DNA of 64,000 bases, taken from the NCBI RefSeq assembly GCF_900104535.1, contig NZ_LT629710.1:2170001-2234000 (forward strand). Direction: 5' to 3'. The notes beneath the pieces are model-generated. The model had not been told where the DNA came from, did not search any database, and saw only the letters and a list, made by a program, of their open reading frames with translations. Position 1 is the first letter of the stretch. Each line of letters begins with the position of its first letter. This document shows positions 46,715-64,000 of the stretch, in pieces. Source of the DNA: Nakamurella panacisegetis. GTDB taxonomy: Bacteria; Actinomycetota; Actinomycetes; Mycobacteriales; Nakamurellaceae. The position numbers were made by a program, and so were the translations under genes.

Positions 46715-46957
46715 CTACCGCCGTCCGATCATCGCCCCGACCCGTCCGCCGACCGCCACCGCGAGAACGATGATGGCCGCGATGACGACCGATGCGATCA
46801 GCGTCCCGAACGGTTTCCGCATGTCCCGGGGGCCGCGCTCCCATCCGTGCAGCAACAGGGCGAGCGCCGTCAGCGATCGCGTCGCGTGTGCCTGGAGCAC
46901 CACCCTGGGCCGTGGGGCTGCGGTCGCCGGCCGACCAGTGGGTGAGGGGTCGGTCAC
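46715..46957 (-). CDS. small membrane protein of the ESX-associated set
   Basis: An 80-residue protein with a basic cytosolic head and one C-terminal transmembrane helix (about 52-73, ending GAMIGRR). It starts with GTG overlapping the stop of the 269-residue gene (GTGA). It has no recognised family; its role follows only from the coupled neighbours. Confidence 0.65.
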   Translation of the reverse strand: MTDPSPTGRPATAAPRPRVVLQAHATRSLTALALLLHGWERGPRDMRKPFGTLIASVVIAAIIVLAVAVGGRVGAMIGRR

Positions 46958-48092: not shown

Positions 48093-48297
48093 CGTTGCGC
48101 CTGCCTTTCCTGACCTGCCGTGCGGGTGGTACCCGGGACGCCGGTATGCGATCACGGACGAACCGGCGGTCGCGATGGTCCCGGGTCGTTCCGTGGGTCA
48201 TGCTGCCAGGGCCCGGGGCGCCGACGGACGAGTTGTCCACAGTCGATCCGTCATTGCCGGGCTGGAACTCGTGGCCCGCGCCTCCCGCTGACGACGG

Positions 48298-48945: not shown

Positions 48946-49013
48946 GGATGGGGAGGCTAGCGGCGGTCACCGACAGCCCCCGCGGCTCCCGCGCCCGGCT
49001 CGCCTGGCGCGCA

Positions 49014-49072
49014 TCGACCGGTATGACATTCACGCTCTCAGGCCGTTTCAGCGTGAATACCATTCCGGTCGA
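49014..49072. terminator. bipartite hairpin after eccC
   Basis: The outer arms are TCGACCGG (49014-49021) and CCGGTCGA (49065-49072); the inner arms are ATTCACGCT (49028-49036) and AGCGTGAAT (49050-49058). It lies 24 bases past the eccC stop and 69 bases before the methyltransferase start. Probably a terminator for eccC. The inner AT-rich palindrome also looks like a regulator site. Confidence 0.55.
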
Positions 49073-49095
49073 CGGTCGGGCCGCTCCGGTGAACG

Positions 49096-52000
49096 TCAGT
49101 CGACCGCGTCGTCCGGTCGGTGGCCGAGCTGGATCAACACCGGCTTGCGGCCGCGGCGGATCAGCGTGCCGCGGCCGGGTGGTTGGACCGACAGGTGCAC
49201 CCCGGGGTAGATCGCGCCCTCCTGACGGTCGCCGGACAGCAGCAGACCGGTCGCCCCGACCTCCCGCAGACGCTGCGGCACCGGCTCGTACAGCGCGCGG
49301 GACACGCCCCCGGAGCGGCGGGCCACAATCAGGTGGAACCCGACGTCGCGGGCCTGGGGCAGGAACTCGACGAACGGCGCCAAGGGTCCGGCGCCGGCGG
49401 GGGAGAGCAGGTCGTAGTCGTCGACGATGACGAAGATCTCCGGCCCGCGCCACCAGGACCTGGTGCGCAGGGCGACGGCGGTCACGTCATCCGGGGGCAG
49501 ACGTCCCCGGAGCTCCCCGGCCACGCCGGCGGCCATCCCGGCGGCCATGGCGGTGGTGCCGGCGTACGCCCCGAGGTAGTCCTCGGGCACCACGTCGAGC
49601 AGAGTGCGCCGGACATCGAACACCGCGAACACCACTTCCTGGTCGGTGTATCGCGACACCAGATCCCGCACGAGCAGCTTCAACAGCGACGTCTTGCCCG
49701 ACTCCGCGTCGCCGACGATCAGCAGATGCGAGTCGGCGCCCCGCCAGTCCAGCTCGACCGGCTTCAGATCGGTCTCGTCCACCCCGATGACGATGCCTGC
49801 GCGCGGGCCGGCCGAGGCCAGCAGCCGGGCCTGGTCGACCAGCGTCGGCAGCATCCGGATCGGCGGGACCGGATCGCCGGGCCACGCGGCGGCGATCGAG
49901 CGGATCAGGGACTCCAGGGTGGTCCCCGGCGACGGACCCGCCGGGTCCGCCGGCTCGGTCGCGGCCGGCTCCGGGGCGGCCGGCCCCGGCGTGGTCGAAC
50001 CGCCGGTCGAGGTCCCGCGAAGGCGACCCGGCAGCCCGGCGGCGAATTCCGGACGGGCGATCTGCGCCATCAGGCCGCCCTCGACCAGGCAGCGCCCGGG
50101 GTTCCCGGCGCGCAGGTTCACCGCCTGCTTGCGGCCGAGCACCGAATCACCCGGGTCGTTGAGCCGGAATTCGATCTTCGTCCCGATCGCCGCCTGCAGT
50201 TGCATCCGGACGTCCGACCACCGGCCGCAGGTCAGGATCAGGTGGATGCCGTAACCGGGGCCGCGGGTTCCGAGGTCCTGGACCAGATCGGCCAGATCCT
50301 CGAAATCGCTGCGCAGCACCGGAAAGTTGTCGATCACCAGGAACACGTCGGCCACCGGCAGTTCGGTGAGCCGGCCCCGCCGGAACGCCTCGCGCATGGC
50401 CTCGACCGAATCGAGCCCGAGCCGGGCGAACAGCTCCTCCCGCTCGGCCAGAGCCGCCGCCACCTCGGCCACCGTCCGGCGGACCCGGTCCGGCTCGAGC
50501 CGGCTGGCGACACCGGCCACGTGCGGCAGGCCGTCGAGGACGCGCAGCGCTCCGCCTCCGAGATCCAGGCAGTAGAAGGCGACCTCGCCCACCTGGTGGC
50601 TCAGGGCGGCCGAGACGACCAGGGTCCGCACCAGGTTCGACTTGCCGGTCCGGGGAGCACCGAGGACGGCCAGGTGCCCGCCGGACGCGGCCAGGTCCAG
50701 TCGCAGCGGCTCCTGCTTCTGCTCGGCCGGTTTGTCGAGCCGGCCCAGCGCGACCGTCAACGGCGGCGGCGCCGATTCCGTCCGCAAGCCGAGGACACCG
50801 TCGACCCGCAGCCCGCCGACGACATCGTCAAGGGTGAGTTCGGCCGGGAGCGGGGGCAGCCAGATCGGGCTGACCTGACGGCCGGCCCGGGCGAGCTGAC
50901 GGACGGCCACGTCCAGCACCGTCGGGGCCAGGGCGTCGTCGGCCGGCCCGGCCGCCGGGCGGTCCGGTGCGACGGCGGCCAGGTACTCCGCCGTGTCGTT
51001 GAACAGCGGGAAAGGGGCCGGTACCGGTGGCGCGTCGACCAAGGTCTCTGCGGTCGCCGGCGGCACGTACGGCCCCGATACGTAGCCGGCCTTGAACCGC
51101 TCGAAGACCGTGGTGTCGACCTTCAGGAAGCCCGATCCCGGCATCGGCGGCAGCTCGTAGGCGTCCCCGACGCCGAGGACGGCCCTGGACTCGCCGACGT
51201 TGAAGGTCCGCAGGCCCAGCCGGTAGGACAGGAACGACTCCAGTCCACGCAGCCGGCCCTCCTCGAGTCGCTGGCTGGCCAGCAGCAGATGGACCCCGAT
51301 GGACCGTCCGATCCGTCCGATGGCCAAGAACAGCTCGATGAAGTCGGGTTTGGCCGTGAGCAGCTCGCCGAACTCGTCGATGACCACGAACAGGTTCGGC
51401 AGCGGGGCTCGGCAGGCCTCGTCGCCCTGGTCGCGGCGACGGTTGTACTCGGTGATGTTGGGCAGGTTGCCGGCGTCGGCCAGCACCTGCTGGCGGCGCT
51501 TCATCTCCCCGAACAGGGCGTCGTGCAGGCGATCGACCAGGCCGGTGTCGTCGGACAGATTGGAGATCATCGCGGCGCAGTGCGGAATGTGCTCGAGGCC
51601 GGCGAAGGTGGCGCCGCCCTTGTAGTCGACCAGCACCATGGACAGCCGCTCCGGCGGATGCAGGATGGCCAGGGTCAGCACCAGGGTGCGGAGCACCTCC
51701 GACTTGCCCGACCCGGTCGCCCCGACGCACAACCCGTGCGGACCCATACCGCCCAGGGCCGGCTCCTTCAGGTCGAGAAAGACCCGCTCGCCGGTCGGGC
51801 CCAGCCCGAACGGCACCCGCAGGAAGTCGGCCCCGGCCCGCGGAGCCCAGGTCCGGCTGACGTCGAAGTGCGCCGGGTCGGTGACCCCGACCAGATCACC
51901 GAGGTCGAGCGTGGCGTCCAGCGGAGCGGCGGCCGCGGTCTCCTCGACCAGCCGTACGGCCGTCAACTCCCGGACCAGGGCCCGGAGGGTTGACGCCTCG

Positions 52001-53214
52001 ATCCGGTCGCCCAGCCCGGTCCTGGCCCCGGCCGCCCTGAGGCGGGCCTCCGCGTTGTCGTCCTCCCCCGGAGGGCGCAGGTCCTGCACCGTGATCCCGG
52101 CATCGTGGCAGGTCAGCCGGACGTCGACCCGTTCCGGTTCGAGGGCTGCGTGCTCGACCAGGGTGACGACGCTGATCCCGAGATCGGCTGGTTCGAACTC
52201 GGGAGGCAACCCGATGAACAGGTCGACCGACACGCCCAGGTCGACGATGACCACCAGCGCCGGTCCGAGCCGGGACGGGTCCGCCCGCCCGAACCGACCG
52301 GCCCGGACCGCTTCCGAGGTGCGGCGCGAGATCTCCGGGCCAAGGAGCGTGGCCAGCTGCTCGGCATGCTCGGTGACCAGGCGTTTCGGGGCGGACCCGT
52401 CGAACTCCTCGGTGGAGAGGGATTGCGGCAGCCACTTGAGCCAGTCCAGCCATCCCGCGCTGCGCCGCGGAACGCACCCGTAGATCCGCAGTTCACCCGG
52501 CCCGTGCGTGGCCGCCAGCTGGGCCAGGGCCGCGGTGACGATCTGACGGACCGGCCCGGACGGCCCGACCACGCAGACCCGGCCGTTGACGGGCAGGCCG
52601 ATCGGCATACCGGCCACCACGCGGTCCCGCTCCACGATGCGCAGGGTGGCCGCGGCGACCACCACGTCCGGCTCGGCCAGTTGATCCCGTGCGGGGGGAG
52701 CGCTCACCCTTCGCCACAACGGGCTGGACCCGGTGCCGACCCGGGCGATCAGGAAGTCCGGGTCCTGGGGGCGTCGCTCCCACAACCGGAGGGGATCCCG
52801 GACCAGTTCCGGCAGCACCGCCGGGTCGGGGTGGTGCCGCAGGGCGCGGGAGCGCTGCTCGGCCACGGCCACGGCCAGGTCGGATCGCACGCGGTCCAGA
52901 TAGTCCAGATACCGCCGCCGCAGGTCGGTGGCTCGCCTGGCGGTCCCGGTCCGCTGGGCCACGAACATCACCACGGCGCCGCCGATGGTGGCGGTCAGCA
53001 TGATGCCGCCGGCGATCAGCATCACCGGGTTCCGGTTGGCCACGATCATGATCAACGATCCGGCGCCGCCCATGATCGGCATCAGGATCTGCATGACGCC
53101 CTGCAGACCGGCCGCGGCGTCGGGCAACGTGGGGGGCGCGAGCAATTCGACCGGGCGCAGATCGACCGGCTCCGGGTGGCTCCGCGCCGGGCGGTGGATC
53201 AGCCGTTGGGTCAT
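49096..53214 (-). CDS. eccC: type VII secretion ATPase EccC
   Basis: The motor ATPase of an ESX (type VII) secretion system, 1372 residues, close to the family length. Two N-terminal membrane helices (about 40-85) are followed by a stalk and three FtsK/SpoIIIE-type ATPase domains. Walker A motifs are GATGSGKS (498-505), GAPRTGKS (852-859) and GDAESGKT (1168-1175). Walker B of domain 1 is complete (VVIDEFGE, 610-617); domain 2 has IDNF in place of Asp-Glu, as in EccC domains that bind rather than turn over ATP. The ATG at 53214 follows ggaggagagg. It is divergent from eccD. Confidence 0.93.
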   Translation of the reverse strand: MTQRLIHRPARSHPEPVDLRPVELLAPPTLPDAAAGLQGVMQILMPIMGGAGSLIMIVANRNPVMLIAGGIMLTATIGGAVVMFVAQRTGTARRATDLRRRYLDYLDRVRSDLAVAVAEQRSRALRHHPDPAVLPELVRDPLRLWERRPQDPDFLIARVGTGSSPLWRRVSAPPARDQLAEPDVVVAAATLRIVERDRVVAGMPIGLPVNGRVCVVGPSGPVRQIVTAALAQLAATHGPGELRIYGCVPRRSAGWLDWLKWLPQSLSTEEFDGSAPKRLVTEHAEQLATLLGPEISRRTSEAVRAGRFGRADPSRLGPALVVIVDLGVSVDLFIGLPPEFEPADLGISVVTLVEHAALEPERVDVRLTCHDAGITVQDLRPPGEDDNAEARLRAAGARTGLGDRIEASTLRALVRELTAVRLVEETAAAAPLDATLDLGDLVGVTDPAHFDVSRTWAPRAGADFLRVPFGLGPTGERVFLDLKEPALGGMGPHGLCVGATGSGKSEVLRTLVLTLAILHPPERLSMVLVDYKGGATFAGLEHIPHCAAMISNLSDDTGLVDRLHDALFGEMKRRQQVLADAGNLPNITEYNRRRDQGDEACRAPLPNLFVVIDEFGELLTAKPDFIELFLAIGRIGRSIGVHLLLASQRLEEGRLRGLESFLSYRLGLRTFNVGESRAVLGVGDAYELPPMPGSGFLKVDTTVFERFKAGYVSGPYVPPATAETLVDAPPVPAPFPLFNDTAEYLAAVAPDRPAAGPADDALAPTVLDVAVRQLARAGRQVSPIWLPPLPAELTLDDVVGGLRVDGVLGLRTESAPPPLTVALGRLDKPAEQKQEPLRLDLAASGGHLAVLGAPRTGKSNLVRTLVVSAALSHQVGEVAFYCLDLGGGALRVLDGLPHVAGVASRLEPDRVRRTVAEVAAALAEREELFARLGLDSVEAMREAFRRGRLTELPVADVFLVIDNFPVLRSDFEDLADLVQDLGTRGPGYGIHLILTCGRWSDVRMQLQAAIGTKIEFRLNDPGDSVLGRKQAVNLRAGNPGRCLVEGGLMAQIARPEFAAGLPGRLRGTSTGGSTTPGPAAPEPAATEPADPAGPSPGTTLESLIRSIAAAWPGDPVPPIRMLPTLVDQARLLASAGPRAGIVIGVDETDLKPVELDWRGADSHLLIVGDAESGKTSLLKLLVRDLVSRYTDQEVVFAVFDVRRTLLDVVPEDYLGAYAGTTAMAAGMAAGVAGELRGRLPPDDVTAVALRTRSWWRGPEIFVIVDDYDLLSPAGAGPLAPFVEFLPQARDVGFHLIVARRSGGVSRALYEPVPQRLREVGATGLLLSGDRQEGAIYPGVHLSVQPPGRGTLIRRGRKPVLIQLGHRPDDAVD

Positions 53215-53410
53215 GCGTCGGACCTCTCCTCCCGAGTGCGGCCCTAGACTACGGCGGTCGGGCAGCCGACCGGGGGGTCTTCGCCGGATGTGTGGACGGC
53301 CGGACGTGGGGCCATCGGCGGTTGACGGAACCGAACGGTCGCCGGAGCGGTCCAGGCGGACGTCGGGGCCGCGATCGGCGGCACCGCAGGCACGCGCTCG
53401 AGGGAGGTTC

Positions 53411-54826
53411 ATGAGCACCCGGTTCACCAGGGTCACCGTCGTCGGTGACGGTCGGCAGATCGATGTCTCGCTCCCGGCCGACGCGCCCCTGACCGAACAG
53501 ATGCCGATCGTGCTGCGCCTGCTGTCGGTTCCCACCGGTGCGGCCCCGGTGCGTTGGCGATTGGCCGCCCCCGAGTTCGGGGCCCTCGATCCGAACCGCT
53601 CCCTGGACGACGTCGGGGTGCTGGACGGGGCGGCCCTGTACCTCACCGAGGCGGCGACCGCGCCCCCGGCGCCGTTCGTCGACGACGTGGAGGAGGTCGT
53701 CGCCGAGACCGTGGTCGACGCGGCGCCGGCCTGGCGGGATCAGGCCAGGCGGAGTGGGATCGCCTGGCTGCTCGTGGTCGTCATGGGCGGCGGCCTGCTG
53801 CTGGGCCTCGGTACGACCTCGGCCGTGGGCTGGATCGCCCCGGCCGTGGTGTTGCTGGCCGCCCTTGCGGTCGGCGCGGCCATCGGAGAACCGGGCGGCC
53901 GGACGGCCGCCCTCACCGCGGTTCCGGCTGCTCCTGCGGTCGTCCTCGGGGTCGTCGCGGCCCGACCGTCGATCCTCGGCCGGGTGGGCGACCTGTCCTT
54001 TCCCGGAGTAGTGCCGACCCGGCCGATCGACGAACTCGGCGTCGCGTGGAACGGATTCCCCCTTCTGCTGGTCACCGCGGCGGCGCTCGGACTGGCTGCG
54101 GCCGGGGCGGTGGGCCGGACGCCCGGTCTGGCCACCGGTGCGCTGATCGGCGCTCTCGCGTCGGTCGGCGGCCTGATCGGGATCCGGGCCGGGCTGCCGG
54201 TCGATCGCACCGCCGCCCTGGCGCTGGTGCTCGCCGTGGTGCTCACCGGCCTGGCCGGCCAGGCGGCCCTCGGGGGCGCCGGGCTGGTCGACCTGATGGT
54301 GGCCGACGAGCGCGGGGAGCCGGTGCCCCGCGCGCTGGTCGTGGCCGCGGTCCGGCGGGGGCTGTCCCTGGCCGGTGGCCTCGTCGGCTCGGCCGCGGTG
54401 GTGGGCGCCGTGGCCGGCTGGGAACTGATCGTCCGTGCTCCCGACGACGGCAGCATCGCCTGGACCGCCCCTGCCCTCGGTATTCTCGGCGGCGCGGTGT
54501 TCGGGTCGCGCAGCCGGATGTTCACCCGGGCGGCCCACATCGGGCCGATGTTGGCGGTCACCGTGGTCGTTGCGGTCGCGGTCGCTCTGCGGCTGCCCGC
54601 CTGGCTCGAGTTGACCCCGGCCACCGGGTCGGTCCTGGTGCTCCTGGTCTTGATGGTGGTCGGTGCGCTACTCCTGCTGGGCGGTTTGCGTACGCTCCGC
54701 GAAGTGAGCGGGGCCCGGGTACAACGCGGGCTCGAGCGGTTGGAGCTGCTGGCCGTGCTGGCCCTGGTGCCCGGGCTGGTCCTGCTGTTCCGGGTCATTC
54801 CGGCAGTTCAACGATGGTGGGGCTGA
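53411..54826 (+). CDS. eccD: type VII secretion membrane protein EccD
   Basis: The ESX inner-membrane channel component, 471 residues. The N-terminal ubiquitin-like YukD domain (about 1-85, FTRVTVVGDGRQIDVSLPAD, LDPNRSLDDVGVLDGAALYL) is followed by a linker and about 11 hydrophobic segments from residue 112 on. In known ESX systems EccD dimers line the membrane pore with EccB, EccC and EccE. The ATG at 53411 follows gagggagg. It is 30 bases upstream of the Hsp70-like gene, so they are probably co-transcribed. Confidence 0.88.
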   Translation: MSTRFTRVTVVGDGRQIDVSLPADAPLTEQMPIVLRLLSVPTGAAPVRWRLAAPEFGALDPNRSLDDVGVLDGAALYLTEAATAPPAPFVDDVEEVVAETVVDAAPAWRDQARRSGIAWLLVVVMGGGLLLGLGTTSAVGWIAPAVVLLAALAVGAAIGEPGGRTAALTAVPAAPAVVLGVVAARPSILGRVGDLSFPGVVPTRPIDELGVAWNGFPLLLVTAAALGLAAAGAVGRTPGLATGALIGALASVGGLIGIRAGLPVDRTAALALVLAVVLTGLAGQAALGGAGLVDLMVADERGEPVPRALVVAAVRRGLSLAGGLVGSAAVVGAVAGWELIVRAPDDGSIAWTAPALGILGGAVFGSRSRMFTRAAHIGPMLAVTVVVAVAVALRLPAWLELTPATGSVLVLLVLMVVGALLLLGGLRTLREVSGARVQRGLERLELLAVLALVPGLVLLFRVIPAVQRWWG

Positions 54827-54856
54827 CCATGACAGCGGAAGACGGAGGCAGGTGAC

Positions 54857-56857
54857 ATGCGGCTCCTGGCCATCGACTTCGGTACGTCGAACACCGTCGC
54901 GGCATTGCTGGTCGACGGGCAGGCACCCCGGACGGTCACCTTCGACACGTCTCCCATGCTGCCGTCGGCCGTGTTCGTCGCGGCCGATGGACAGGTGACG
55001 GTCGGCCGTGACGCCCAGCGTCAGGCCCGGCTCGACCCGACCCGCTTCGAACCCAATCCCAAACGGCGCATCGACGACGGGGAGGTCCTGCTGGGCGACC
55101 GCGTCGTTCCGGTGGTGGACGTCATTGCCGCCGTGCTGCGGGTGGTGGCCACTGAGGTCCGCCGGCAACTGGGTGGCGCGGCACCCGACGAGGTCCGGCT
55201 GACGCACCCGGCGCAGTGGGGCGCCACTCGGCAGAACGTGCTGGTGACGGCCGCGCGCGCGGCCGGGCTGGGCGCCAACCTGGTGCTCATCCCGGAGCCG
55301 GTGGCCGCGGCGGCCCAGTTCACCCGGCTGCCCGGCCGTGCGCTGCCGCCGGGCGGAACGGTGGCGGTGTACGACCTCGGGGGCGGAACCTTCGACGTCG
55401 CCATCGTCGGCCGCACGCCGCCCAGCCCGTCGGCCCCGGATGCCGACGACGGGCAGTTCCACGTGCTGGCCGAGGCCGGGCTGCCCGATCTCGGCGGTCT
55501 CGATTTCGACCAGGCGATCCTGGACCAGGTCGGGCGGACCACCTCGTCCATCGATCCGGCCCGCTGGCAGCAGATCCTGCGGCCGGCCGATCCCTACGGA
55601 CGCCGGGCCGCGCGAGCCCTGGCCGAGGACGTCCGGGCGGCCAAGGAGACGCTGTCCCGGTATCCGCAGACCGACGTCTCGCTGCCGGACCCCTTCGCCG
55701 ACGCCCACCTGACGCGTACCGAGTTCGAGGGGCTGATCCGGCCCAATCTGCTCCGCTCGATCGAGGTGCTCTCGGCGACCCTGCGGACGGCCGGGATCAC
55801 ACCGGACCGGCTGGGCGGCATCTTCCTGGTCGGAGGCTCGTCGCGGATCCCGTTGGTCGCCGGTCTGATCCAGGACCGGCTGCACGTCACCCCGGTCGCG
55901 CTGGACCAGCCGGAGACCGCGGTCGCGCTGGGTGCGCTGTTGGTGCCGGTGCACCGCGGCGGAAGCCGGACGGTGGCGATGTCCGACCGCCCTGGGCCCT
56001 CCACCGGGCCGCGTCCGCTCCGATCCGACACGCCGGTCGCCGGCGGCGACCCGGCCCTCGTGCCGCCCCCGAGGGCGCGGCCCGCCCCGGCCCCGACGGT
56101 CGCAGCGACGGCCGGGGCCAGGGGACGGCGTTGGCCGATCCTGGTCGGCGGGTTGGTCCTGCTGGCCGTCATCGGCTTGGTCCTGGTGGTCACCCGGCCG
56201 TTCGGCGGGAACGCCCCGGCGGCCGAACCGACCGCTACGCAGACATCCGACCCGTCGACGAACCTCACCACTTCCGGTGGGCCGGCCTCCAGTGCCGGGG
56301 GCGGTCCACGGGTCAGCGCCACCGTGACCACCGGGCTCGGGCCGGGCAAGGTGTTCACCGCCGGCGAGGTGGCGTTCATGAGCCAGAACGTTTCCGGGCT
56401 GATCGACTGTTCCGACATCACGACCGACTTCAACACCGCCGTGAAGGGAACGGCCGGCGGGGTGTTCCAGGTCAGCCGGGCCGTTCGGTGCGGGATCACC
56501 CCGGGTGAGCTGCCGGACGGGCAGACGAAGGTGTTCGTCTACACGATGACGGTCAGGGACTCGGCCGCCGCGGCGGCGTACGTCGAGGCCGTCTACCGCA
56601 ACAAGGTCAAGGACAAGTACGACGCCTACAAGCGGGACTCCACGACGCAGTTCGCCAATGGTCCCGGCGGCCGCGTGGTGGCCGTCTACGACCTGCCCGA
56701 TCTCGGGACGTCGTCGTTGAACCCGTCGGTGGGCGCAACCGTGCTGGCCTGGGACCTGAGCGGTCAGCGCTACGTCGGGCTGGTCGTCTCCCTCGACCTG
56801 TCCACCCAGAGCGACCTGCTCGACTACTGGTCACAGACGTTCAAACCCCGGGGTTGA
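54857..56857 (+). CDS. membrane-anchored Hsp70-like protein
   Basis: A 666-residue protein. An actin-fold Hsp70 nucleotide-binding domain fills 1-365: DFGTSNT (7-13), DLGGGTFD (173-180) and VGGSSRIP (325-332). In place of the substrate-binding domain there is a Pro-rich linker, one transmembrane helix (427-446) and an outward domain (about 485-666) with two cysteines. ATP hydrolysis in the cytosol could therefore be coupled to a domain outside. It sits between eccD and the dynamin-like gene in one direction. A minimal GrpE-like protein encoded two genes on is a plausible nucleotide-exchange partner. Confidence 0.86.
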   Translation: MRLLAIDFGTSNTVAALLVDGQAPRTVTFDTSPMLPSAVFVAADGQVTVGRDAQRQARLDPTRFEPNPKRRIDDGEVLLGDRVVPVVDVIAAVLRVVATEVRRQLGGAAPDEVRLTHPAQWGATRQNVLVTAARAAGLGANLVLIPEPVAAAAQFTRLPGRALPPGGTVAVYDLGGGTFDVAIVGRTPPSPSAPDADDGQFHVLAEAGLPDLGGLDFDQAILDQVGRTTSSIDPARWQQILRPADPYGRRAARALAEDVRAAKETLSRYPQTDVSLPDPFADAHLTRTEFEGLIRPNLLRSIEVLSATLRTAGITPDRLGGIFLVGGSSRIPLVAGLIQDRLHVTPVALDQPETAVALGALLVPVHRGGSRTVAMSDRPGPSTGPRPLRSDTPVAGGDPALVPPPRARPAPAPTVAATAGARGRRWPILVGGLVLLAVIGLVLVVTRPFGGNAPAAEPTATQTSDPSTNLTTSGGPASSAGGGPRVSATVTTGLGPGKVFTAGEVAFMSQNVSGLIDCSDITTDFNTAVKGTAGGVFQVSRAVRCGITPGELPDGQTKVFVYTMTVRDSAAAAAYVEAVYRNKVKDKYDAYKRDSTTQFANGPGGRVVAVYDLPDLGTSSLNPSVGATVLAWDLSGQRYVGLVVSLDLSTQSDLLDYWSQTFKPRG

Positions 56858-56899
56858 GTCGCGGGTCCACCTCCGATCCATCCGAGAAGGCAGGCACCG

Positions 56900-58609
56900 A
56901 TGCAGGGTCCGTTGTCGCAGGCCGTCGGCGCGATGTGCACCGCGCTGCTCCCCCAGGTGTCACCGCGCACCGCGGCGGGGGTCGGCGAGGTACTGCGGCG
57001 TCTGGACACGCCGCTGCAGCTGGCCGTGGCCGGGCGCATCAAATCCGGCAAGTCGACGCTGGTCAACGCGCTGATCGGGCGGCGCGTGGCGCCCACCGAC
57101 ATCGGCGAGTGCACCCGGCTGGTGACCCGCTTCCGGTACGGCACCGTCGACCGCATCGAAGTGCTGTTCAAGGACGGCCGCCGGTCCACGCTGCCGTTCG
57201 CGCCGGACGGCGGCATCCCGGCCGACCTGGGGGTCGATCTGGCCGGTGTCTCCCATCTCGAGGCCTACCTGACCAGCGCGCTGCTGGCCGACATCACCGT
57301 CATCGACACCCCGGGGCTCGGCTCGCTGGACGCGGTGTCGGTGTCGCGAACCGAAGCGCTGCTCGGCGCGGCTGGGGCGACAGCCGCGGCGTCGCCGTCC
57401 TCGGTCGCGGAGAGCGGGAAGGGCGCGGGGCTCGACCCCGTCTCGCAGTTCGCGGTGGCCGGCGCCGAAGCGGTCGTGTACGTGTTCACCCAGTCCGTCC
57501 GGGCCGACGACACGATGGTGCTGGCCGCGTTCACCGCCGCCACGGCCTCTCGTGATGCCGGCCCGGTGAACGCCCTGGCCGTGCTGAACAAGGCCGACAC
57601 CGTGGTCGCCGACTCGGTGCAGGGCGCCGGCGGTGACATCAGGGAGGCCGCCCGCATCCTGGCCCGCAGCCAGGCCGATCTGCTCCGGCCGCGGGTGGCC
57701 GACGTTCTCCCGGTGATCGGGCTGCTGGCCGAGACAGCCGAGACCGGAGCTTTCACCGCGGCCGACGCCGAGGCCCTGCGAGCTCTGACCGGCGTCGACC
57801 CGGGCCTGTTCGGGGCGATGACGATGGCCGCCGACCTGTTCACCGAAATGGACGCCCCGATCGATCGCCCGACCCGGATCCGGCTGCTGCAGCTGCTGGA
57901 CCTGTTCGGCATTGCCGAGGCGGTGTCGATCCTGCGCGCCGAGCCGTCGATCTCGGCCGGTGAGCTCCGCCGACGCCTGCTGGACGCGTCCGGGTTCGCC
58001 GACCTGCGTCGGCGGCTCGGCGAGGTCTTCCGTGCCCGGGCCGACGGGATCAAGGCGTCGGCCGCGTTGGCGTCGATGGCGGCCCTGGCCGCGTCCTCCG
58101 ACGACTGGGCGGAGCGGCAGCGGGTGCACGACGCGATCGAGGTGCTGCTGCAGCGCCCGGAAGCCCACCAGCTTCGCCTGATGGAGGCCTTGACGCTGGT
58201 CAGCACGGGGGCGGTGGCCATGCCGGCGGACCTCACGGCCGAGATCCTCCGCCTGGGTGGCTCGGTGCGGCCGGAGGATCAACTGGGTCTGCCCGGCGCG
58301 CCGGCGACGCTGCTGGCGGCGGCGGCACTGGAACGCGCCGGCTGGTGGCGTTCGTTCGCATCCTTCGGCGCGACACCGGCCCAGAGCCGGGTCGCGCATG
58401 TCGTGCACCGCGCGTACTTCCTGCTCTGGCAGGACCTCAGGGGCGACCTGCCGTCGGGTCCGATCGGTGCGCTGGCCGCGGGCAATTTCCCGCAGCCGAT
58501 GATCCCGCCGAACCGATGGCCGCCGGTCTCGGACGGCCGGGCCCCGGCCGCTCCGCCGTTCGCCGCTGAGTACCCGAACCAGGGCCGGCCGGGCGAGGGT
58601 TGGCGATGA
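56900..58609 (+). CDS. dynamin-family GTPase 1
   Basis: A 569-residue bacterial dynamin-like GTPase. G1 is GRIKSGKST (45-53), G3 DTPG (136-139), G4 NKAD (230-233). The remaining two-thirds is helical (stalk-like) with no obvious membrane insert, ending in a Pro-rich tail. Bacterial dynamin-like proteins (e.g. Streptomyces DynA/DynB, mycobacterial IniA/IniC) bind and remodel membranes and often come in pairs; the second is at 61032. The ATG at 56900 follows gagaaggcag. Its stop overlaps the GrpE-like gene by 4 bases. Confidence 0.87.
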   Translation: MQGPLSQAVGAMCTALLPQVSPRTAAGVGEVLRRLDTPLQLAVAGRIKSGKSTLVNALIGRRVAPTDIGECTRLVTRFRYGTVDRIEVLFKDGRRSTLPFAPDGGIPADLGVDLAGVSHLEAYLTSALLADITVIDTPGLGSLDAVSVSRTEALLGAAGATAAASPSSVAESGKGAGLDPVSQFAVAGAEAVVYVFTQSVRADDTMVLAAFTAATASRDAGPVNALAVLNKADTVVADSVQGAGGDIREAARILARSQADLLRPRVADVLPVIGLLAETAETGAFTAADAEALRALTGVDPGLFGAMTMAADLFTEMDAPIDRPTRIRLLQLLDLFGIAEAVSILRAEPSISAGELRRRLLDASGFADLRRRLGEVFRARADGIKASAALASMAALAASSDDWAERQRVHDAIEVLLQRPEAHQLRLMEALTLVSTGAVAMPADLTAEILRLGGSVRPEDQLGLPGAPATLLAAAALERAGWWRSFASFGATPAQSRVAHVVHRAYFLLWQDLRGDLPSGPIGALAAGNFPQPMIPPNRWPPVSDGRAPAAPPFAAEYPNQGRPGEGWR

Positions 58610-58938
58610 CCGACCAGACCGGGCGCGGCGAGGTGGAGTCCGATCCCGACCTCGCGGCCGAGCGCCGGCTGCTGATCGATCTGTTGATCTACGCCTGGGA
58701 CCGGGCGCGCAGTCCCGGGGTCTGGGAACGGTTGACAGTCGGGCTGGAACAGGTCGGGGTGGAGGTCATCCGGCCCGACGGCCAGCCGTTCGACCCGTCG
58801 TCCCACGAGGTCGGCGGGGTCGAACCGACCTCGGACCCGGCCCGGCACAACACCGTGGCCGAGACGGAGACCGTGGGCTTCCGCGACCGCGGGCGGCTGG
58901 TTCGGGAGCCGGTGGTCGTCGTTTTCCGCTCCGGCTGA
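58606..58938 (+). CDS. minimal GrpE-like nucleotide exchange protein
   Basis: A 110-residue protein that keeps the GrpE C-terminal beta domain: EVIRPDGQPFDPSSHEVGG, VEPTSDPARHNTVAETETVGF and the closing REPVVVVF. Only a short N-terminal helix (about 17-45) replaces the long coiled coil of GrpE, so it would be a miniature form. GrpE releases ADP from Hsp70; the partner is probably the membrane Hsp70 two genes upstream. The ATG at 58606 overlaps the dynamin stop (ATGA), showing tight coupling. Confidence 0.78.
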   Translation: MTDQTGRGEVESDPDLAAERRLLIDLLIYAWDRARSPGVWERLTVGLEQVGVEVIRPDGQPFDPSSHEVGGVEPTSDPARHNTVAETETVGFRDRGRLVREPVVVVFRSG

Positions 58939-59437
58939 GGTCTCCGGCCGACGCCAAACGGGCAATCCCCGGGGCGGATGCCCCGGCTGGGCGCCGGGAA
59001 TTCCGCGCCCGGGGAATAGGCGGGCGATCGGTCCCGCCCGGAATCGGCCGATTCGCCCTGAGCCGGTCGTCGTTCGGCGTGGCGACCCCGGATCGACCGG
59101 CCGATCACGCGTGCGCGGTCGGCCCATCGAGATATCGGCTGCCGGCAGGTCGGTAATTCGCGCGCAATCGGCGCCGGGTCCGGAATCGCCAACCGTGACT
59201 GCGACGAGGTTGATTCGACTGTCCGGCAACCAGTTTCGCCGAGACGGGGCGACGCCGGGATTGTTGACCGGTTCATCCGGCGCGATGGAGTCGCTCGCGG
59301 GTGGTGGAGGGTCTAAGCCCTCAGCGACACTAAAGGCAGTCCTTTCGTTTCGCCGGATCGGTGGTTCGTCGTCACGTTCCGGTCTTCCGTGAGCGATGAT
59401 GTGGTCCACACGTTCACCCGAATCGGAAGGCCTCGTC
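58939..59437 (+). promoter_or_regulatory. 499-base intergenic region upstream of lsr2
   Basis: No gene with support. It contains two small stem-loops near lsr2, GAGGG/CCCTC (59307-59322) and AAAGG-cagt-CCTTT (59332-59345), and a ribosome site ggaagg at 59425-59430. I see no confident promoter. The length fits a regulated leader, since lsr2-type genes usually bind their own promoters. Confidence 0.5.
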
Positions 59438-59779
59438 ATGGCTCAGGTCACCAATGTCAAACTTCTCGACGATCTCGACGGCAGCAAGGCCGTGGAGACG
59501 ATCTCCTTCGGTATCGACGGCGTCGGCTATGAAATCGATCTGAATCTGAAGAACGCGAAGGCGCTCCGCAAGGCCATGGCCGAGTTCGTCGCCGCCGGTC
59601 GGCACCTCAAGGTGCCGGCCGCCGGTTCGGCCGCCCGGTCGACATCGCGGAGCCGGTCAGCCGGACCCGATGCCGCCGTCATTCGGCAGTGGGCCAACGA
59701 GAACGGGGTGCCGGTCTCCGTCCGCGGCCGGGTGTCGGCCGACGTCCGGGCGCAGTACATGGCGGCCACCGGGCAGTAG
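59438..59779 (+). CDS. lsr2: Lsr2 nucleoid-associated protein
   Basis: A 113-residue Lsr2, the actinobacterial H-NS-like xenogeneic silencer. The N-terminal oligomerisation part starts MAQVTNVKLLDDLDGSKAVET; the C-terminal DNA-binding helix pair ends with the AT-hook-like VSVRGRVSADVRAQY (RGR grips the minor groove). It binds AT-rich DNA and silences horizontally acquired genes. The ATG at 59438 follows ggaagg. It lies inside the ESX/dynamin region between the GrpE-like and desaturase genes. Confidence 0.95.
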   Translation: MAQVTNVKLLDDLDGSKAVETISFGIDGVGYEIDLNLKNAKALRKAMAEFVAAGRHLKVPAAGSAARSTSRSRSAGPDAAVIRQWANENGVPVSVRGRVSADVRAQYMAATGQ

Positions 59780-59862
59780 TCAGCGGCCGCCTTGTGCCAC
59801 CCCAACGTGCGGACACCGACGAAGGTTCCGCTGATGTGAATATCTCTCCGTCGAGGAAATCT

Positions 59863-59885
59863 CCCCGAAACACGGGGTAGCTTTT
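59863..59885 (+). terminator. hairpin after lsr2
   Basis: CCCCG-aaaca-CGGGG (59863-59877) followed by tagctttt. It is the only stem-loop with a partial U-tract that I see here. It lies 83 bases after lsr2 and 60 bases before the desaturase start, so it likely separates them. Confidence 0.5.
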
Positions 59886-59945
59886 GGGCAAGTACGTCCG
59901 TCGGATTCGACGCGTCGCCCAAACCCCGGAGTTGGAGAGCAAGAC

Positions 59946-60980
59946 TTGACGATCACCTCGAGTGGAATCAGCACCAGAACGATTTCCCGCGACGCCGCGG
60001 GACTGCAGACCCGGCTGCTGCACGACCTCGAACCGGTCGTCGAGGAGAACCTCAACCGTCACCTGTCGGTCTTCAAGAACTGGATGCCGCACGATTACAT
60101 CCCGTGGAGCAAGGGCCGGGATTTCGAGATGCTGGGCGGCCAGGACTGGGATCCGGCCGATTCCACCCTCGATCCGACGGCCAAGACGGCGATGATCGTC
60201 AACCTGCTCACCGAGGACAACCTGCCGTCCTACCACCGTGAGATCTCCACCCGGTTCGGCCGGGACGGCGCCTGGGGTCAGTGGGTCGGCCGCTGGACCG
60301 CCGAGGAGGGCCGCCACGGCATCGCCCTGCGCGACTACCTGGTGGTGACCCGCGGCGTCGACCCGGTCGAACTCGAGAACCTGCGCATCGCGCACATGAC
60401 GGCCGGCTACGACTCCGGTGACAAGTCGGTGCTGAACACCGTGGCCTACGTCTCCTTCCAGGAGTTGGCCACCCGCGTGTCGCACCGCAACACCGGCAAG
60501 GCGTCGGGGGATCCGTTGGCCGAAGCCCTGCTGGCCCGGATCGCCCTGGACGAGAACCTGCACATGATCTTCTACCGGAACCTGGTCGGGGCCGCGTTCG
60601 ACCGCGCTCCGGACGCCACCATGGCGGCGATCCGCGACGAGGTGCTCGGGTTCGAGATGCCCGGGGCGAACATGCCCGGCTACACCCGCAACGCCGTCAC
60701 CATCGCCAAGGCCGGCATCTACGACCTGCGTCTGCACCACGACGCAGTGGTTCAGCCGGTGCTGAAGTTCTGGAACGTCTTCACCCGCTGCGACCTCGGC
60801 CCGGAGGGTGAGCGGGCCCGTGAGGAACTGGCCGCCTTCATGGCCGGGCTGGATGCCCAGGCCGCCCGGTTTGTGGAGCAGCGCGAGACCATGCGGGCCC
60901 GGATGGCGGCCAAGGCGGAGGCGAAGGCCGGAGCCACGCCCGTCCCCTCGCCGTTGCTCGTGCCTTCGGCCACGACCTGA
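59946..60980 (+). CDS. acyl-ACP desaturase (DesA type)
   Basis: A 344-residue soluble di-iron desaturase that introduces a cis double bond in acyl-ACP. Iron ligands are in TEDNLPSYH, TAEEGRHG and LDENLHMIF (the two ExxH motifs). It resembles mycobacterial DesA1/DesA2. An Ala/Lys-rich tail ends the protein. It starts with TTG at 59946 after ggagagc. Its role is membrane-lipid fluidity or long-chain lipid synthesis. It ends 51 bases before the second dynamin gene. Confidence 0.88.
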   Translation: MTITSSGISTRTISRDAAGLQTRLLHDLEPVVEENLNRHLSVFKNWMPHDYIPWSKGRDFEMLGGQDWDPADSTLDPTAKTAMIVNLLTEDNLPSYHREISTRFGRDGAWGQWVGRWTAEEGRHGIALRDYLVVTRGVDPVELENLRIAHMTAGYDSGDKSVLNTVAYVSFQELATRVSHRNTGKASGDPLAEALLARIALDENLHMIFYRNLVGAAFDRAPDATMAAIRDEVLGFEMPGANMPGYTRNAVTIAKAGIYDLRLHHDAVVQPVLKFWNVFTRCDLGPEGERAREELAAFMAGLDAQAARFVEQRETMRARMAAKAEAKAGATPVPSPLLVPSATT

Positions 60981-61031
60981 CCTTCGCCGAAGCCACCCGA
61001 CCGCCACCGGGACGCAGGTAGGTTCGGCGGC

Positions 61032-63209
61032 ATGACTGCACCCGATCCGTTCGCGTCGGTCGCGGCACTCGGCATCGCCACGCCGGCGGCGGCTCGTCCG
61101 GTGGCCGGCCGGCCGGTCGGGCTGCCGCTCCCGCAGGCGGTTCGCCAGTGGCGGGACGGGTCCACCGACTGGCTACGCGTCGACGACCCGGACAGCGCCG
61201 GAAACCTGGCCGCGCGCAAGGCGAGCCCGCAGTCGCCGCGGGTGGTCGTGGTCGGCGAGACCAACCGCGGGAAGTCATCACTGGTCAACGCGCTCCTCGG
61301 CGTGAACGGCCTGTCGCCGGTCGATGCCGGTACCGCGACCTGCAGCTACCTGGTGTTCAGGCACGCACCGGTCCCGTACACGGTGGCCCGGTTCGGAGGC
61401 GGCCTGGCCGACGTCACCTTCCCGCCGAAGGACCTGCGAGCCTGGGCCACGGTCGACGGCGAGCCGGATGTCGAGCTCCCGCCGCCGCGCTGGATCGAGG
61501 TCGGTGTGCCGTCCCCGATCACCGCCGAGATGACGATCGTGGACACCCCCGGCGTCGGTGGGCTGATCGCCGCCCACGCCGAGCTGGCCGCCGAGGCCGC
61601 GGCCGCCGCGACCGCGGTGCTGTTCGTGGCCGACGCCTCGGCGCCGCTCACCCGGCGGGAGCTGGACTTCCTGGCCCAGGTCTCCGACCGGGTCGAGGCC
61701 GTCCATTTCGTCATCACCAAGACCGACGCCTACCGCGGGTGGCGTGAGATCGTCGAGGCGAACCGACTGCTGCTGGCCCGCCACGCGCCGCGGTTCGCCG
61801 CCGCGCAGGTCCATCCGGTCTCGTCCCGGCTGGCCGAGGCCGCGGCCGGCCAGACCGATCCGAAGATCGCCGACGTGCTGCTGGCCCAGTCCGGCGTCCC
61901 CCAACTGCGCGCCGCGCTCCGGACGGAGGTGGCCGCGGCCGCGGCGATGATGGCCGAAGCCAACATCATCCGCACCTCGATCACCGTGTTGACCGGCACG
62001 CTGGCCCAGCTCGACGCCCGACGCGCGGCTCTCACCGCCGGGGCGGCGCAGGCCGATGCGCTCAAGGCCCGACGTGAGGAATTGCTGAATCAGCGCAAGG
62101 CGGGGACCCGCGGCTGGCAGGTGATGTTGCGGGCCGAGATCCAGCGGGCGCGGGTCGACCTCACGCACGAGACGGCGCGTGAGGTGCGGGAGGCATCCCA
62201 GATGTTCCGCGGGGCGATCGACGCCGCGGACAACGCCGAACTGAAGAACATGGCTTTCCACATCGACGCCTACGCCCAGGCGATGACCGCCCGGGCCCAT
62301 GGCCGGCTGACCGACGCCATGGGCCGGATCTGCCGGACGGTGCTGTCCGAGTTGTTCACGCCGCCGGAGCTCACCGTGCTGGTCTCCCAGCTGGCCACCC
62401 GTCCGTACCAGGCACTGGTCACGCGGGCCCCGGACAAACCCAGGAACATGGACGACACGATCATGACGATGTCCGGCGCCGGCATGGGTTTCACCATGTC
62501 CCGGATGCTGACCATGCTGCCGGCGGCCGCCCTGCCCGCAGCCTTCGGCGTGGTGATGGCGCCGGTGTCGATCGTCCTCGGCGGCGCCGCCGCGTTCTAC
62601 CTGATGAAATCGCGCCGTCGGATCGCCGAGAAGGGACACCTCAAGCAGTGGCTGATGGAGGTGCTCGGGGAGGCCAAGGCCCAGATCGACCAGAACATCG
62701 CCGAGCAGTTCATCGAGGCCGACGAGCAGTTGACCCTGGCCCTGGACGACGCCCTCACGCGTCAGGTCGCCGCTCTCGACCAGCAGATCAGAGAGGTCGA
62801 CGGCGCGCTGAAACTGGACGCCACCGAACGGTCCGGGCGCGTGCGGACGTTGGACGAACGCCGCGCCGCCGGAGCGAGCATCGTGGCCGGCGGGGAGGCG
62901 TTGCTGCACCGCATCCGGGCCACCCGGGCCGGTGTCCTCCAGGCGACCGAGTCGGGCGACGCGAGCCCCGCCACGCGGCCGGCCCCGGCCGCGCCGGCGC
63001 CCCCTCGATCCATCAAGTTGCCCGGTGGCCTGCCGGAACTGATGCGGGCACCGTCCGGTCGCCACGCGGCGCCCGAACCGTCGCCGCGGCCGACATCCGA
63101 TGCCCGGTTCGCCGGGTTGAACCTGGCCGCCCTGGTCGCGGCGGCGCCCGCGCGCCGTCCAGCTTCTCCGGCCGATCCGGCCGATCCGCCGCTCGCTCCG
63201 CCGCCCTGA
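61032..63209 (+). CDS. dynamin-family GTPase 2 with hydrophobic paddle
   Basis: A 725-residue dynamin-like GTPase. G1 is GETNRGKSS (75-83), G3 DTPG (171-174), G4 TKTD (229-232). A helical stalk (about 290-480) is interrupted by a hydrophobic hairpin (about 482-525, GAGMGFTMSRMLTMLP... APVSIVLGGAAAFYLM) that can insert in the membrane, then a return helical part and a Pro/Ala-rich tail. The first dynamin lacks such a paddle, so the two probably form a hetero-pair. ATG 61032; the next gene begins 103 bases later. Confidence 0.88.
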   Translation: MTAPDPFASVAALGIATPAAARPVAGRPVGLPLPQAVRQWRDGSTDWLRVDDPDSAGNLAARKASPQSPRVVVVGETNRGKSSLVNALLGVNGLSPVDAGTATCSYLVFRHAPVPYTVARFGGGLADVTFPPKDLRAWATVDGEPDVELPPPRWIEVGVPSPITAEMTIVDTPGVGGLIAAHAELAAEAAAAATAVLFVADASAPLTRRELDFLAQVSDRVEAVHFVITKTDAYRGWREIVEANRLLLARHAPRFAAAQVHPVSSRLAEAAAGQTDPKIADVLLAQSGVPQLRAALRTEVAAAAAMMAEANIIRTSITVLTGTLAQLDARRAALTAGAAQADALKARREELLNQRKAGTRGWQVMLRAEIQRARVDLTHETAREVREASQMFRGAIDAADNAELKNMAFHIDAYAQAMTARAHGRLTDAMGRICRTVLSELFTPPELTVLVSQLATRPYQALVTRAPDKPRNMDDTIMTMSGAGMGFTMSRMLTMLPAAALPAAFGVVMAPVSIVLGGAAAFYLMKSRRRIAEKGHLKQWLMEVLGEAKAQIDQNIAEQFIEADEQLTLALDDALTRQVAALDQQIREVDGALKLDATERSGRVRTLDERRAAGASIVAGGEALLHRIRATRAGVLQATESGDASPATRPAPAAPAPPRSIKLPGGLPELMRAPSGRHAAPEPSPRPTSDARFAGLNLAALVAAAPARRPASPADPADPPLAPPP

Positions 63210-63312
63210 TCCACGCCCCTGATCGCGGGTCGGCGGAACCGAAAGGCCCGTCCGCGAGTCCGAACCGCAGTACCGTGCCTCATCCGCGACCGCGACTGCC
63301 CGAGGAGGATCG

Positions 63313-64000
63313 ATGTTCACCGACGCCGACCCGGCCGACCACTTCGGATCCGAACCCGATGTGCCGCCGGACCACCTCGAAGCGCTGTCCGCAGCCGCTT
63401 TCGACGACCACGACTATCCGGGCGTGCCCGGGGAGCACATCGGGGCGGCCGCGGCCGGGGACGCCGACGGCGACGGCGAGTCCGCTCCGGCGCACGGCGC
63501 CGAATTCGTCCCGACCACCGAGGCTGAGCCATCCGCTCCCGGCCCGGCGCCCGGGGCCGATCCGCCGGCGACCCACACCGCTCCGGACATCGTCTACACC
63601 AGCCTCGGCGGCGGCACGACGGACCTCGGCCCACCGGTCGAGGACCTCGACGGGGACGGGATCGCCGAGTCGGTCGCGGTGCACACGGCGGCCGGCGACA
63701 TCCTCGTCCTGTCCGACACCGACGGCGACGGCCACCCCGACCAGATGATCCAGATCGACCCGACCACCGGCACCGCGACCTGGGCCGTTCCCGACGACCA
63801 CGGTGGCTGGGACGTCGTCCAGACCGGTCACGTCGACGCCGACGGCATCGTGGTCGTCGACCATGCGCAGCAGACCCCGGCCCACGTCGCGGCCCGGACC
63901 GACCCCGACCGGGGCGACGTCGAGGTGGCGGTGGGCGGCCGGTCGTTCGACGCCGGGCCGGCCACCATCGACAGTGACGGCGACGGCGTTCCGGACACCG
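63313..64000 (+). CDS. DxDxDG-repeat protein, cut by window end
   Basis: The first 229 residues of an acidic protein that continues past the window. A Pro/Ala-rich head (1-100) is followed by repeated Asp-rich loops (LDGDGIAESVAV, DTDGDGHPDQ, DSDGDGVPDT) of the calcium-binding thrombospondin-3/EF-hand-like type. There is no signal peptide at the N-terminus. It resembles actinobacterial DUF6802-like proteins (family assignment is inference). The ATG at 63313 follows gaggagg. It follows the dynamin gene in the same direction and may be a substrate or surface partner of the module. Confidence 0.72.
   Translation, partial: MFTDADPADHFGSEPDVPPDHLEALSAAAFDDHDYPGVPGEHIGAAAAGDADGDGESAPAHGAEFVPTTEAEPSAPGPAPGADPPATHTAPDIVYTSLGGGTTDLGPPVEDLDGDGIAESVAVHTAAGDILVLSDTDGDGHPDQMIQIDPTTGTATWAVPDDHGGWDVVQTGHVDADGIVVVDHAQQTPAHVAARTDPDRGDVEVAVGGRSFDAGPATIDSDGDGVPDT

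What the first reader, a model, noticed from the sequence alone, without database searches (positions are those of the whole stretch)
53411..64000. ESX - Hsp70 - dynamin - GrpE envelope module
eccD, a membrane-anchored Hsp70-like protein, a dynamin-like GTPase and a GrpE-like protein lie head to tail (30-base, 42-base and 4-base junctions). A second paddle-bearing dynamin and a DxDxDG protein follow. Chaperone ATPase, exchange factor, membrane-remodelling GTPases and a type VII pore component together suggest a machine for exporting or inserting envelope material. Close relatives of the parts (IniA/IniC, DynA/DynB) are known, but a linked chaperone pair is not a standard ESX element.
Basis: partly seen in the sequence, partly recalled or inferred. 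Interest (0 to 1): 0.75.

Follow-up and report, generated by a model that had tools for sequence, protein, structure and literature searches.

The report
Dynamin pair with tethered Hsp70 helpers
This bacterium carries a conserved gene set that puts a membrane-anchored Hsp70 chaperone engine and a cut-down GrpE beside two membrane-remodelling dynamins related to the IniA/IniC envelope-stress proteins of mycobacteria; the secretion gene next door belongs to it only in a few close relatives.

Summary
A second dynamin and a DUF6802 (DxDxDG) protein follow, but Lsr2 and desaturase genes intervene here.

The conserved unit is Hsp70–dynamin–GrpE–dynamin, not eccD. By phylogeny the dynamins are IniC and IniA orthologues. 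The GrpE is a 110-aa protein that keeps the DnaK-contacting beta-domain. Of 150 genomes of the order, 43 have it; in 42 it lies within 2 kb of the IniC-like gene. All seven cases from other orders also lie beside both dynamins.

The Hsp70 keeps an intact ATPase domain, lacks the peptide-binding domain and has one transmembrane helix. Its family also sits beside PspA–PspM in this genome and inside ESX-4 loci of Pseudonocardiaceae. In mycobacterial ESX-4 a protein in the place of Rv3446c looks like a decayed member. Here the EccC/EccD block occurs in three of seven congeners with the close module, and no EccB was found in the genome.

Best reading: an Ini-type envelope-stress membrane-remodelling module with a dedicated tethered Hsp70/GrpE ATPase that controls dynamin coats. 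The composition is well supported. The mechanism is inferred.

The parts
54857..56857 (+). Membrane-anchored Hsp70 (666 aa): complete Hsp70 ATPase domain (1-~367), Pro-rich linker, one TM helix (~428-446), extracytoplasmic domain (~450-666) with two conserved Cys; no peptide-binding domain
   Evidence: Pfam HSP70 2.7e-31; motifs DFGTSN 7, PKRRIDD 68, EPVAAA 147, DLGGGTFD 173, GGSSRIP 326 and no LLLDV linker; AlphaFold ATPase domain mostly pLDDT >90, best PDB match DnaK NBD 2.5e-27; Cys conservation in A6
56900..58609 (+). IniC-type dynamin-like GTPase (569 aa), no transmembrane segment
   Evidence: Dynamin_N 5.9e-12; falls in the clade that holds mycobacterial IniC, 100/100; G1/G3/G4 intact
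58606..58938 (+). Short GrpE (110 aa): short helical part plus the beta-domain, no long stalk; overlaps the dynamin stop by 4 bases
   Evidence: PF01025 2.2e-9, positions 100-163/165; profile hits solved GrpE chains, best 1.6e-8; 108-176 bits against <=52 for canonical GrpE; alignment to the genome's own GrpE
61032..63209 (+). IniA-type dynamin-like GTPase (725 aa; alternative start GTG 61101) with one hydrophobic segment
   Evidence: Dynamin_N 2.6e-16; end-to-end match to solved IniA 6j72, 1.9e-16; IniA clade 100/100
63313..64000 (+). DUF6802 (DxDxDG) protein, continues to 64162 outside the window; a second DUF6802 gene follows
   Evidence: PF20615 7e-8 on the full 282 aa; second copy 2e-17; follows the IniA-type gene in most congeners and Pseudonocardiaceae
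53411..54826 (+). EccD of a neighbouring EccC/EccD block; adjacent but not part of the conserved module
   Evidence: YukD and EccD domains; present next to the Hsp70 only in 3 of 7 congeners with the close module
49096..53214 (-). EccC (1372 aa), divergent from EccD
   Evidence: TIGR03924 5.8e-229 and TIGR03925 1.2e-221
59438..59779 (+). Lsr2, lies between the short GrpE and the second dynamin in this genome
   Evidence: PF11774 2.6e-23; the gene is not there in other congeners
59946..60980 (+). Acyl-ACP desaturase, lies between; shared only with G003
   Evidence: PF03405 6.6e-70

Best explanation
The window holds an Ini-type membrane-remodelling module with its own chaperone engine. The two dynamin-like GTPases (IniC-type and IniA-type) form a pair that coats and remodels the inner face of the plasma membrane, probably to repair or shed damaged membrane under envelope stress. 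The Hsp70 is tethered to the same membrane by one helix. Its cytoplasmic ATPase domain acts on the dynamins (inferred) and drives assembly or release of the coat. The short GrpE opens the Hsp70 cleft to exchange ADP for ATP and so resets it. The extracytoplasmic domain of the Hsp70 tells it where, or when, the envelope is stressed (inferred). Shown here: gene order and its conservation, orthology of the dynamins, intact motifs of both GTPases and the ATPase, loss of the peptide-binding domain, presence of the GrpE beta-domain. Inferred: that the Hsp70 acts on the dynamins, that the short GrpE acts on this Hsp70, and the stress role.
For: Conserved linkage: 43 of 150 order genomes have the short GrpE, 42 within 2 kb of the IniC-type gene, median gap 196 bases. 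Seven of seven short-GrpE genes found in other orders, without using dynamins as the query, sit with both dynamins, and six also with the Hsp70. The Hsp70 lies within 10 kb of the IniC-type gene in about 20 of those 43 genomes, where under about 2% is expected from 1-5 such genes per 4-10 Mb genome. The Hsp70 tree needs several separate linkages to dynamins (7 changes, at least 4 forced), so this is not one inherited block. The pair splits congruently in both halves of the dynamin tree. The Hsp70 keeps the catalytic motifs and a DnaK-like ATPase fold. GrpE's beta-domain makes most of the contacts with DnaK (PMC4753570), and that is the part kept. A sister Hsp70 in this genome sits directly behind PspA and PspM, another membrane-stress remodelling set. 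Precedent: the HSP70B/CDJ2/CGE1 chaperones assemble and disassemble VIPP1, a PspA relative (PMC6882379). IniA cuts membranes in vitro and is drug-induced (PMC6715688).
Against: No physical interaction is shown. The Hsp70 lacks the normal peptide-binding domain and the LLLDV linker, so a DnaK-like way of gripping clients is excluded. No J-domain protein is in the module. In most Pseudonocardiaceae the short GrpE and dynamins are together but the Hsp70 lies elsewhere in the genome. Mycobacterial iniBAC has no short GrpE, and its linked Hsp70-like protein has lost the ATP motifs. In this genome Lsr2 and a desaturase separate the second dynamin. The GrpE model has only moderate confidence (pLDDT 71) and a weak fold match (E 0.025, GrpE top).
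Confidence: 0.5

Rival explanations
1. The Hsp70 is a transmembrane sensor or actin-like scaffold rather than a motor on the dynamins: its outer domain reads the wall, and the ATP/ADP state set by the short GrpE switches the dynamins on or recruits them.
For: No peptide-binding domain; Pro-rich linker plus TM plus a variable outer domain that differs with each partner machine (hhalign finds no match between the outer domains of dynamin-linked and ESX-4-linked members); weak MreB matches; decayed ATP motifs in mycobacterial members suggest a binding role can survive without ATPase.
Against: Catalytic motifs are kept in nearly all non-mycobacterial members and a dedicated GrpE is kept beside it, which points to an active ATP cycle. 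Some members end right after the TM helix and so have no outer domain.
Confidence: 0.27
2. One reading: one machine in which the ESX component EccD, the chaperone pair and the dynamins export or insert envelope material.
For: 30-base junction between eccD and the Hsp70; EccD next to the Hsp70 in 3 congeners; other branches of the same Hsp70 family are fixed members of ESX-4 loci.
Against: Four of seven congeners with the close module, and all other families surveyed, lack EccC/EccD there. The window's Hsp70 groups with dynamin-linked, not ESX-linked, members and its outer domain has no TIGR03931 match. No EccB found in the genome.
Confidence: 0.07
3. A GTPase-centred conflict (immunity) system like the GAP1-N2 systems that carry HSP70, GrpE and a second HSP70 without its peptide-binding domain.
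For: Such systems are described in actinobacteria (PMC7159879); the IniA-type dynamin resembles LeoA/LeoBC in PADLOC (2.5e-24).
Against: The GTPases here are dynamins of the IniA/IniC clades; no GAP1, FNIII or effector domain in the module; the LeoA/LeoBC match runs through the shared dynamin fold and no other protein matches PADLOC; inheritance is steady within families, with PEPCK as a recurrent neighbour, not patchy.
Confidence: 0.06
4. No working link: neighbours kept together only by shared descent.
For: Other unrelated neighbours (PEPCK, TldD/PmbA) also recur beside the module.
Against: Recurs in other orders with different gene orders and strands, and with different branches of the Hsp70 family; 4-base overlap between the dynamin and the short GrpE.
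Confidence: 0.1

Closest known systems
iniBAC operon with iniR of mycobacteria (IniB, IniA, IniC)
   Same: Both dynamins are orthologues of IniA and IniC. A dnaK-like gene next to iniR is on record for M. smegmatis (PMC5760070), and I see Hsp70-like plus IniR beside iniBAC in other Mycobacteriaceae.
   Different: Gene order is reversed (IniC before IniA), a short GrpE is present, the Hsp70 has intact ATP motifs and is co-directional, IniB is not seen, IniR is not beside it in this genome.
Canonical DnaK-GrpE-DnaJ chaperone set
   Same: Hsp70 ATPase fold and catalytic motifs; GrpE beta-domain.
   Different: No peptide-binding domain, no LLLDV linker, one TM helix and an outer domain; GrpE without its long stalk; no J-protein. 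The genome has a canonical DnaK-GrpE elsewhere.
ESX-4 type VII secretion with Rv3446c (TIGR03931)
   Same: ESX-4 loci of Pseudonocardiaceae contain an Hsp70 of the same family directly after EccC, with a TIGR03931 C-terminal domain.
   Different: The window's Hsp70 belongs to another branch and has another outer domain; the EccC/EccD block here is a local neighbour.
HSP70B-CDJ2-CGE1 acting on VIPP1
   Same: Hsp70 plus GrpE-type factor working on a membrane-remodelling oligomer (PMC6882379); an analogy of mechanism.
   Different: Target is an ESCRT-III-type protein, the Hsp70 is a normal soluble one, a J-protein is needed.
GAP1-N2 GTPase systems with HSP70 and GrpE (Kaur et al. 2020, PMC7159879)
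   Same: GTPase, Hsp70, GrpE and an Hsp70 without peptide-binding domain in one neighbourhood.
   Different: Different GTPase family, GAP1 and FNIII proteins and effectors, none of which are here.

Membership tests
IniA/IniC dynamin pair | Each GTPase falls in the clade of its mycobacterial counterpart | tested here: met
   64-protein tree: IniC-type and IniA-type groups each on one side of a branch at 100/100
IniA/IniC dynamin pair | Intact GTPase motifs in both | tested here: met
   G1, DTPG and N/TKxD present in both
IniA/IniC dynamin pair | Membrane fission or remodelling activity | not testable with these tools
   Needs purified protein on membrane tubes
iniBAC operon | IniB gene and order iniB-iniA-iniC | tested here: not met
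   Order reversed; no IniB N-terminal domain in the module or in the DUF6802 proteins
iniBAC operon | Induction by isoniazid or ethambutol | not testable with these tools
   No expression data
Hsp70 chaperone (DnaK) | ATPase domain with catalytic residues | tested here: met
   Motifs and fold
Hsp70 chaperone (DnaK) | Peptide-binding domain and interdomain linker | tested here: not met
   Matches stop at the ATPase domain; no LLLDV; TM and unrelated domain instead
GrpE nucleotide exchange factor | Beta-domain that opens the DnaK cleft | tested here: met
   PF01025 positions 100-163/165; hits to solved GrpE
GrpE nucleotide exchange factor | Long stalk helix and dimer | tested here: not met
   110 aa, sequence starts after the stalk of the genome's own GrpE; dimer state unknown
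GrpE nucleotide exchange factor | Speeds ADP release from its Hsp70 | not testable with these tools
   Biochemistry needed
ESX / type VII secretion | EccC and EccD present | tested here: met
ESX / type VII secretion | EccB present | tested here: not met
   0 matches in the own genome and G003, 4 each in two Mycobacteriaceae controls
ESX / type VII secretion | Module always travels with the ESX block | tested here: not met
   EccC/EccD near the module only in own genome, G003, G051
Rv3446c family (TIGR03931) | TIGR03931 C-terminal domain in the window's Hsp70 | tested here: not met
   No match; hhalign against that domain negative
GAP1-N2 conflict systems | DO-GTPase, GAP1 and effector domains | tested here: not met
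   Pfam, NCBIfam and PADLOC show none in the module

The most novel reading that the evidence does not exclude
Actinobacteria have a family of membrane-anchored Hsp70 ATPases without a peptide-binding domain that serve as dedicated recycling motors for membrane machines: dynamin pairs, PspA coats and ESX-4. In the dynamin branch they have a private miniature GrpE, a second bacterial nucleotide exchange factor. Mycobacterial Rv3446c and the dnaK-like gene next to iniR would be decayed members.
Probability: 0.35. Interest if true: 0.85.

Novelty: new variant of a known kind. Interest (0 to 1): 0.62.

Why it matters
IniA and IniC help mycobacteria survive cell-wall drugs, but how bacterial dynamins are loaded on and taken off membranes is not known. 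A conserved, tethered Hsp70 with its own GrpE beside them names candidate control factors that can be tested in harmless actinobacteria. The same Hsp70 family beside PspA and in ESX-4 offers one shared explanation for three membrane machines and suggests what the unexplained ESX-4 protein Rv3446c is. A short second GrpE also runs against the review statement that bacterial genomes encode only one exchange factor for Hsp70 (PMC4753570).

Tried and rejected
A genome-wide search with the full Hsp70 profile failed; a 50-residue N-terminal query was used instead. The solved-structure search with the Hsp70 outer domain found nothing and AlphaFold gave it low confidence, so its fold and ligand stay unknown. 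Promoter and terminator scans were uninformative in this high-GC DNA. The first EccB search could not be read because no control genome rang; it was repeated with two Mycobacteriaceae genomes as positive controls. Considered and rejected: the GrpE match as a chance hit (bimodal scores); ESX membership of the window's Hsp70; a conflict system; the DUF6802 protein as IniB (no IniB domain). Literature searches found no paper joining a short GrpE, this Hsp70 type and Ini dynamins, but the library lacks most subscription journals.

Full report
What is there. EccD (53411-54826), an Hsp70 (54857-56857), a dynamin-like GTPase (56900-58609) and a GrpE-like gene (58606-58938) run head to tail with gaps of 30 and 42 bases and a 4-base overlap. 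The second dynamin (61032-63209) and a DUF6802 protein (63313-64162, ending outside the window) follow, but a 499-base gap, Lsr2 and an acyl-ACP desaturase lie between the GrpE-like gene and the second dynamin. EccC (49096-53214) stands divergent to EccD. The genome is one contig of 5.01 Mb. From memory, the size of congener G073 (6,060,298 bases) is that of Nakamurella multipartita, so the genus is probably Nakamurella; this is a lead, not a test.

The proteins. The Hsp70 has a complete ATPase domain: DFGTSN, PKRRIDD, EPVAAA, DLGGGTFD and GGSSRIP motifs, mostly pLDDT above 90 over residues 1-360, best PDB match the DnaK nucleotide-binding domain at 2.5e-27. It has no peptide-binding domain and no LLLDV linker; instead there is a Pro-rich stretch, one TM helix (about 428-446) and an outer domain with two conserved cysteines. 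The GrpE-like protein is 110 aa and matches only the last 64 positions of the GrpE model, the beta-domain that makes most contacts with DnaK (PMC4753570). The genome's canonical DnaK-GrpE pair lies elsewhere. The two dynamins carry G1, G3 and G4 motifs. They give the only full-length Dynamin_N matches in the genome; a third, short match at 190881 is 385 aa.

Orthology. In a tree of 64 dynamins the first window dynamin falls with mycobacterial IniC and the second with IniA, each group at 100/100. The second also matches solved IniA end to end (1.9e-16). The mycobacterial loci were recognised by their IniB N-terminal domain.

Conservation. Searching 150 genomes of the order with a short-GrpE profile gives two clearly separated score groups: 43 genes at 108-176 bits and canonical GrpE at 52 bits or less. 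In 42 of the 43 genomes the short GrpE is on the same contig as, and within 1,919 bases (median 196) of, the IniC-type dynamin found independently. The exception, G010, has both on different contigs. In a class-wide sample seven further genomes of other orders have the short GrpE; all seven have both dynamins beside it and six the Hsp70. In the order, about 20 of 43 have the Hsp70 within 10 kb. Usual orders are Hsp70-IniC-GrpE-IniA-DUF6802 (this genus) or the same without DUF6802 (family f3), or IniC-GrpE-IniA with the Hsp70 elsewhere (most Pseudonocardiaceae). Genomes without the short GrpE mostly have IniA-IniC in the mycobacterial order, often with an Hsp70-like gene nearby and, in Mycobacteriaceae, with IniR. 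The IniR paper records a dnaK-like gene downstream of iniR in M. smegmatis (PMC5760070). Mycobacterial members have lost the ATP motifs.

The ESX question. EccC/EccD lie near the module only in the window, G003 and G051. In G003 the whole block, with homologues of the window's 46954 and 47760 genes, sits between an ABC-transporter pair and the Hsp70; four other congeners have the transporter pair directly upstream of the Hsp70. No EccB was found in the own genome or G003, against four copies in each of two Mycobacteriaceae controls. So eccD is a local neighbour.

A wider pattern found on the way. A second Hsp70 of the same family in this genome (64% identical in the ATPase domain) sits directly behind PspA and PspM/Rv2743c and before DUF3046-RecA. 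Four congeners have an Hsp70 next to PspA there. Another branch follows EccC in ESX-4-like loci (mycosin, EccD, EccC, Hsp70, two WXG100) in all 11 Pseudonocardiaceae genomes looked at, one of which (L173) is a contig end that shows only part of the locus. Its C-terminal domain is TIGR03931, the Rv3446c domain. In a Mycobacterium ESX-4 locus the gene between EccC and the WXG100 pair gives a 388-aa protein whose C-terminal part matches that profile (1.3e-15) and whose N-terminal part aligns as a shortened, motif-less Hsp70 at about 21-26% identity. The ESX evolution paper counts Rv3446c as an ESX-4 component without naming it an Hsp70 (PMC4791881). The Hsp70 tree separates this family from DnaK and shows PSP, ESX and most dynamin branches as distinct clades. 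The outer domains differ between branches.

How it most likely works. I think the Hsp70 is a tethered ATP-driven factor for the dynamin coat, reset by the short GrpE, in an envelope-stress repair module. Shown: composition, orthology, conservation, intact motifs. Inferred: every interaction and the stress role. Precedents are IniA membrane fission in vitro (PMC6715688) and Hsp70-driven assembly and disassembly of VIPP1 (PMC6882379). Because the peptide-binding domain is missing, how the Hsp70 would grip a dynamin is open; a sensor or scaffold role is the main rival.

Novelty. Ini dynamins, Hsp70 and GrpE are known, and one dnaK-like neighbour of iniR is on record. I found no paper in the searched library that describes the short GrpE, the tethered Hsp70 family or its three partner machines. 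I file it as a new variant of a known kind.

Noticed in passing
L148:7523-11305 (G000:C1:3280522-3284304): Second Hsp70 of the same family directly behind PspA and PspM (Rv2743c family), before DUF3046-RecA; Hsp70 next to PspA also in four congeners.
   Followed up: yes
L164, L166, L170, L172-L179: ESX-4-like loci of Pseudonocardiaceae carry an Hsp70 directly after EccC in all 11 genomes looked at (L173 is a partial locus at a contig end); the four scanned have a TIGR03931 domain.
   Followed up: yes
L192:2770-3936 (minus): Mycobacterial ESX-4 protein in the position of Rv3446c looks like a decayed Hsp70 (short, no ATP motifs, TM, conserved C-terminal domain).
   Followed up: partly
window 46954-54826: EccC/EccD block with a 110-aa gene and a 269-aa gene (no Pfam match; both also present in G003) in a genome where no EccB was found: an incomplete or unusual type VII set.
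   Followed up: partly
L059, L078, L083: Hsp70-like protein between IniR and iniBAC in Mycobacteriaceae has lost the DxG and GGG ATP motifs but keeps a TM helix and a Thr/Pro-rich tail.
   Followed up: partly
L072:4337-10906: A second DUF6802 gene, a TldD/PmbA protease pair and PEPCK follow the module; TldD/PmbA recurs in 4 loci and PEPCK in 11.
   Followed up: partly
window 63221-63296 (minus): tRNA-Pro (CGG) between the second dynamin and the DUF6802 gene.
   Followed up: no
window 59951-60048 (minus): ARAGORN tRNA-Arg call overlaps the start of the desaturase coding sequence; probably false.
   Followed up: no
L039, L041 (G019, G115): Some congeners carry a divergent IniC/IniA-type set with its own Hsp70 (about 40-43% identical in the ATPase domain).
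   Followed up: no
L053, L055 (and L056, L057): In some families the short GrpE has one or two N-terminal TM segments, so the exchange factor itself may be membrane-bound.
   Followed up: no
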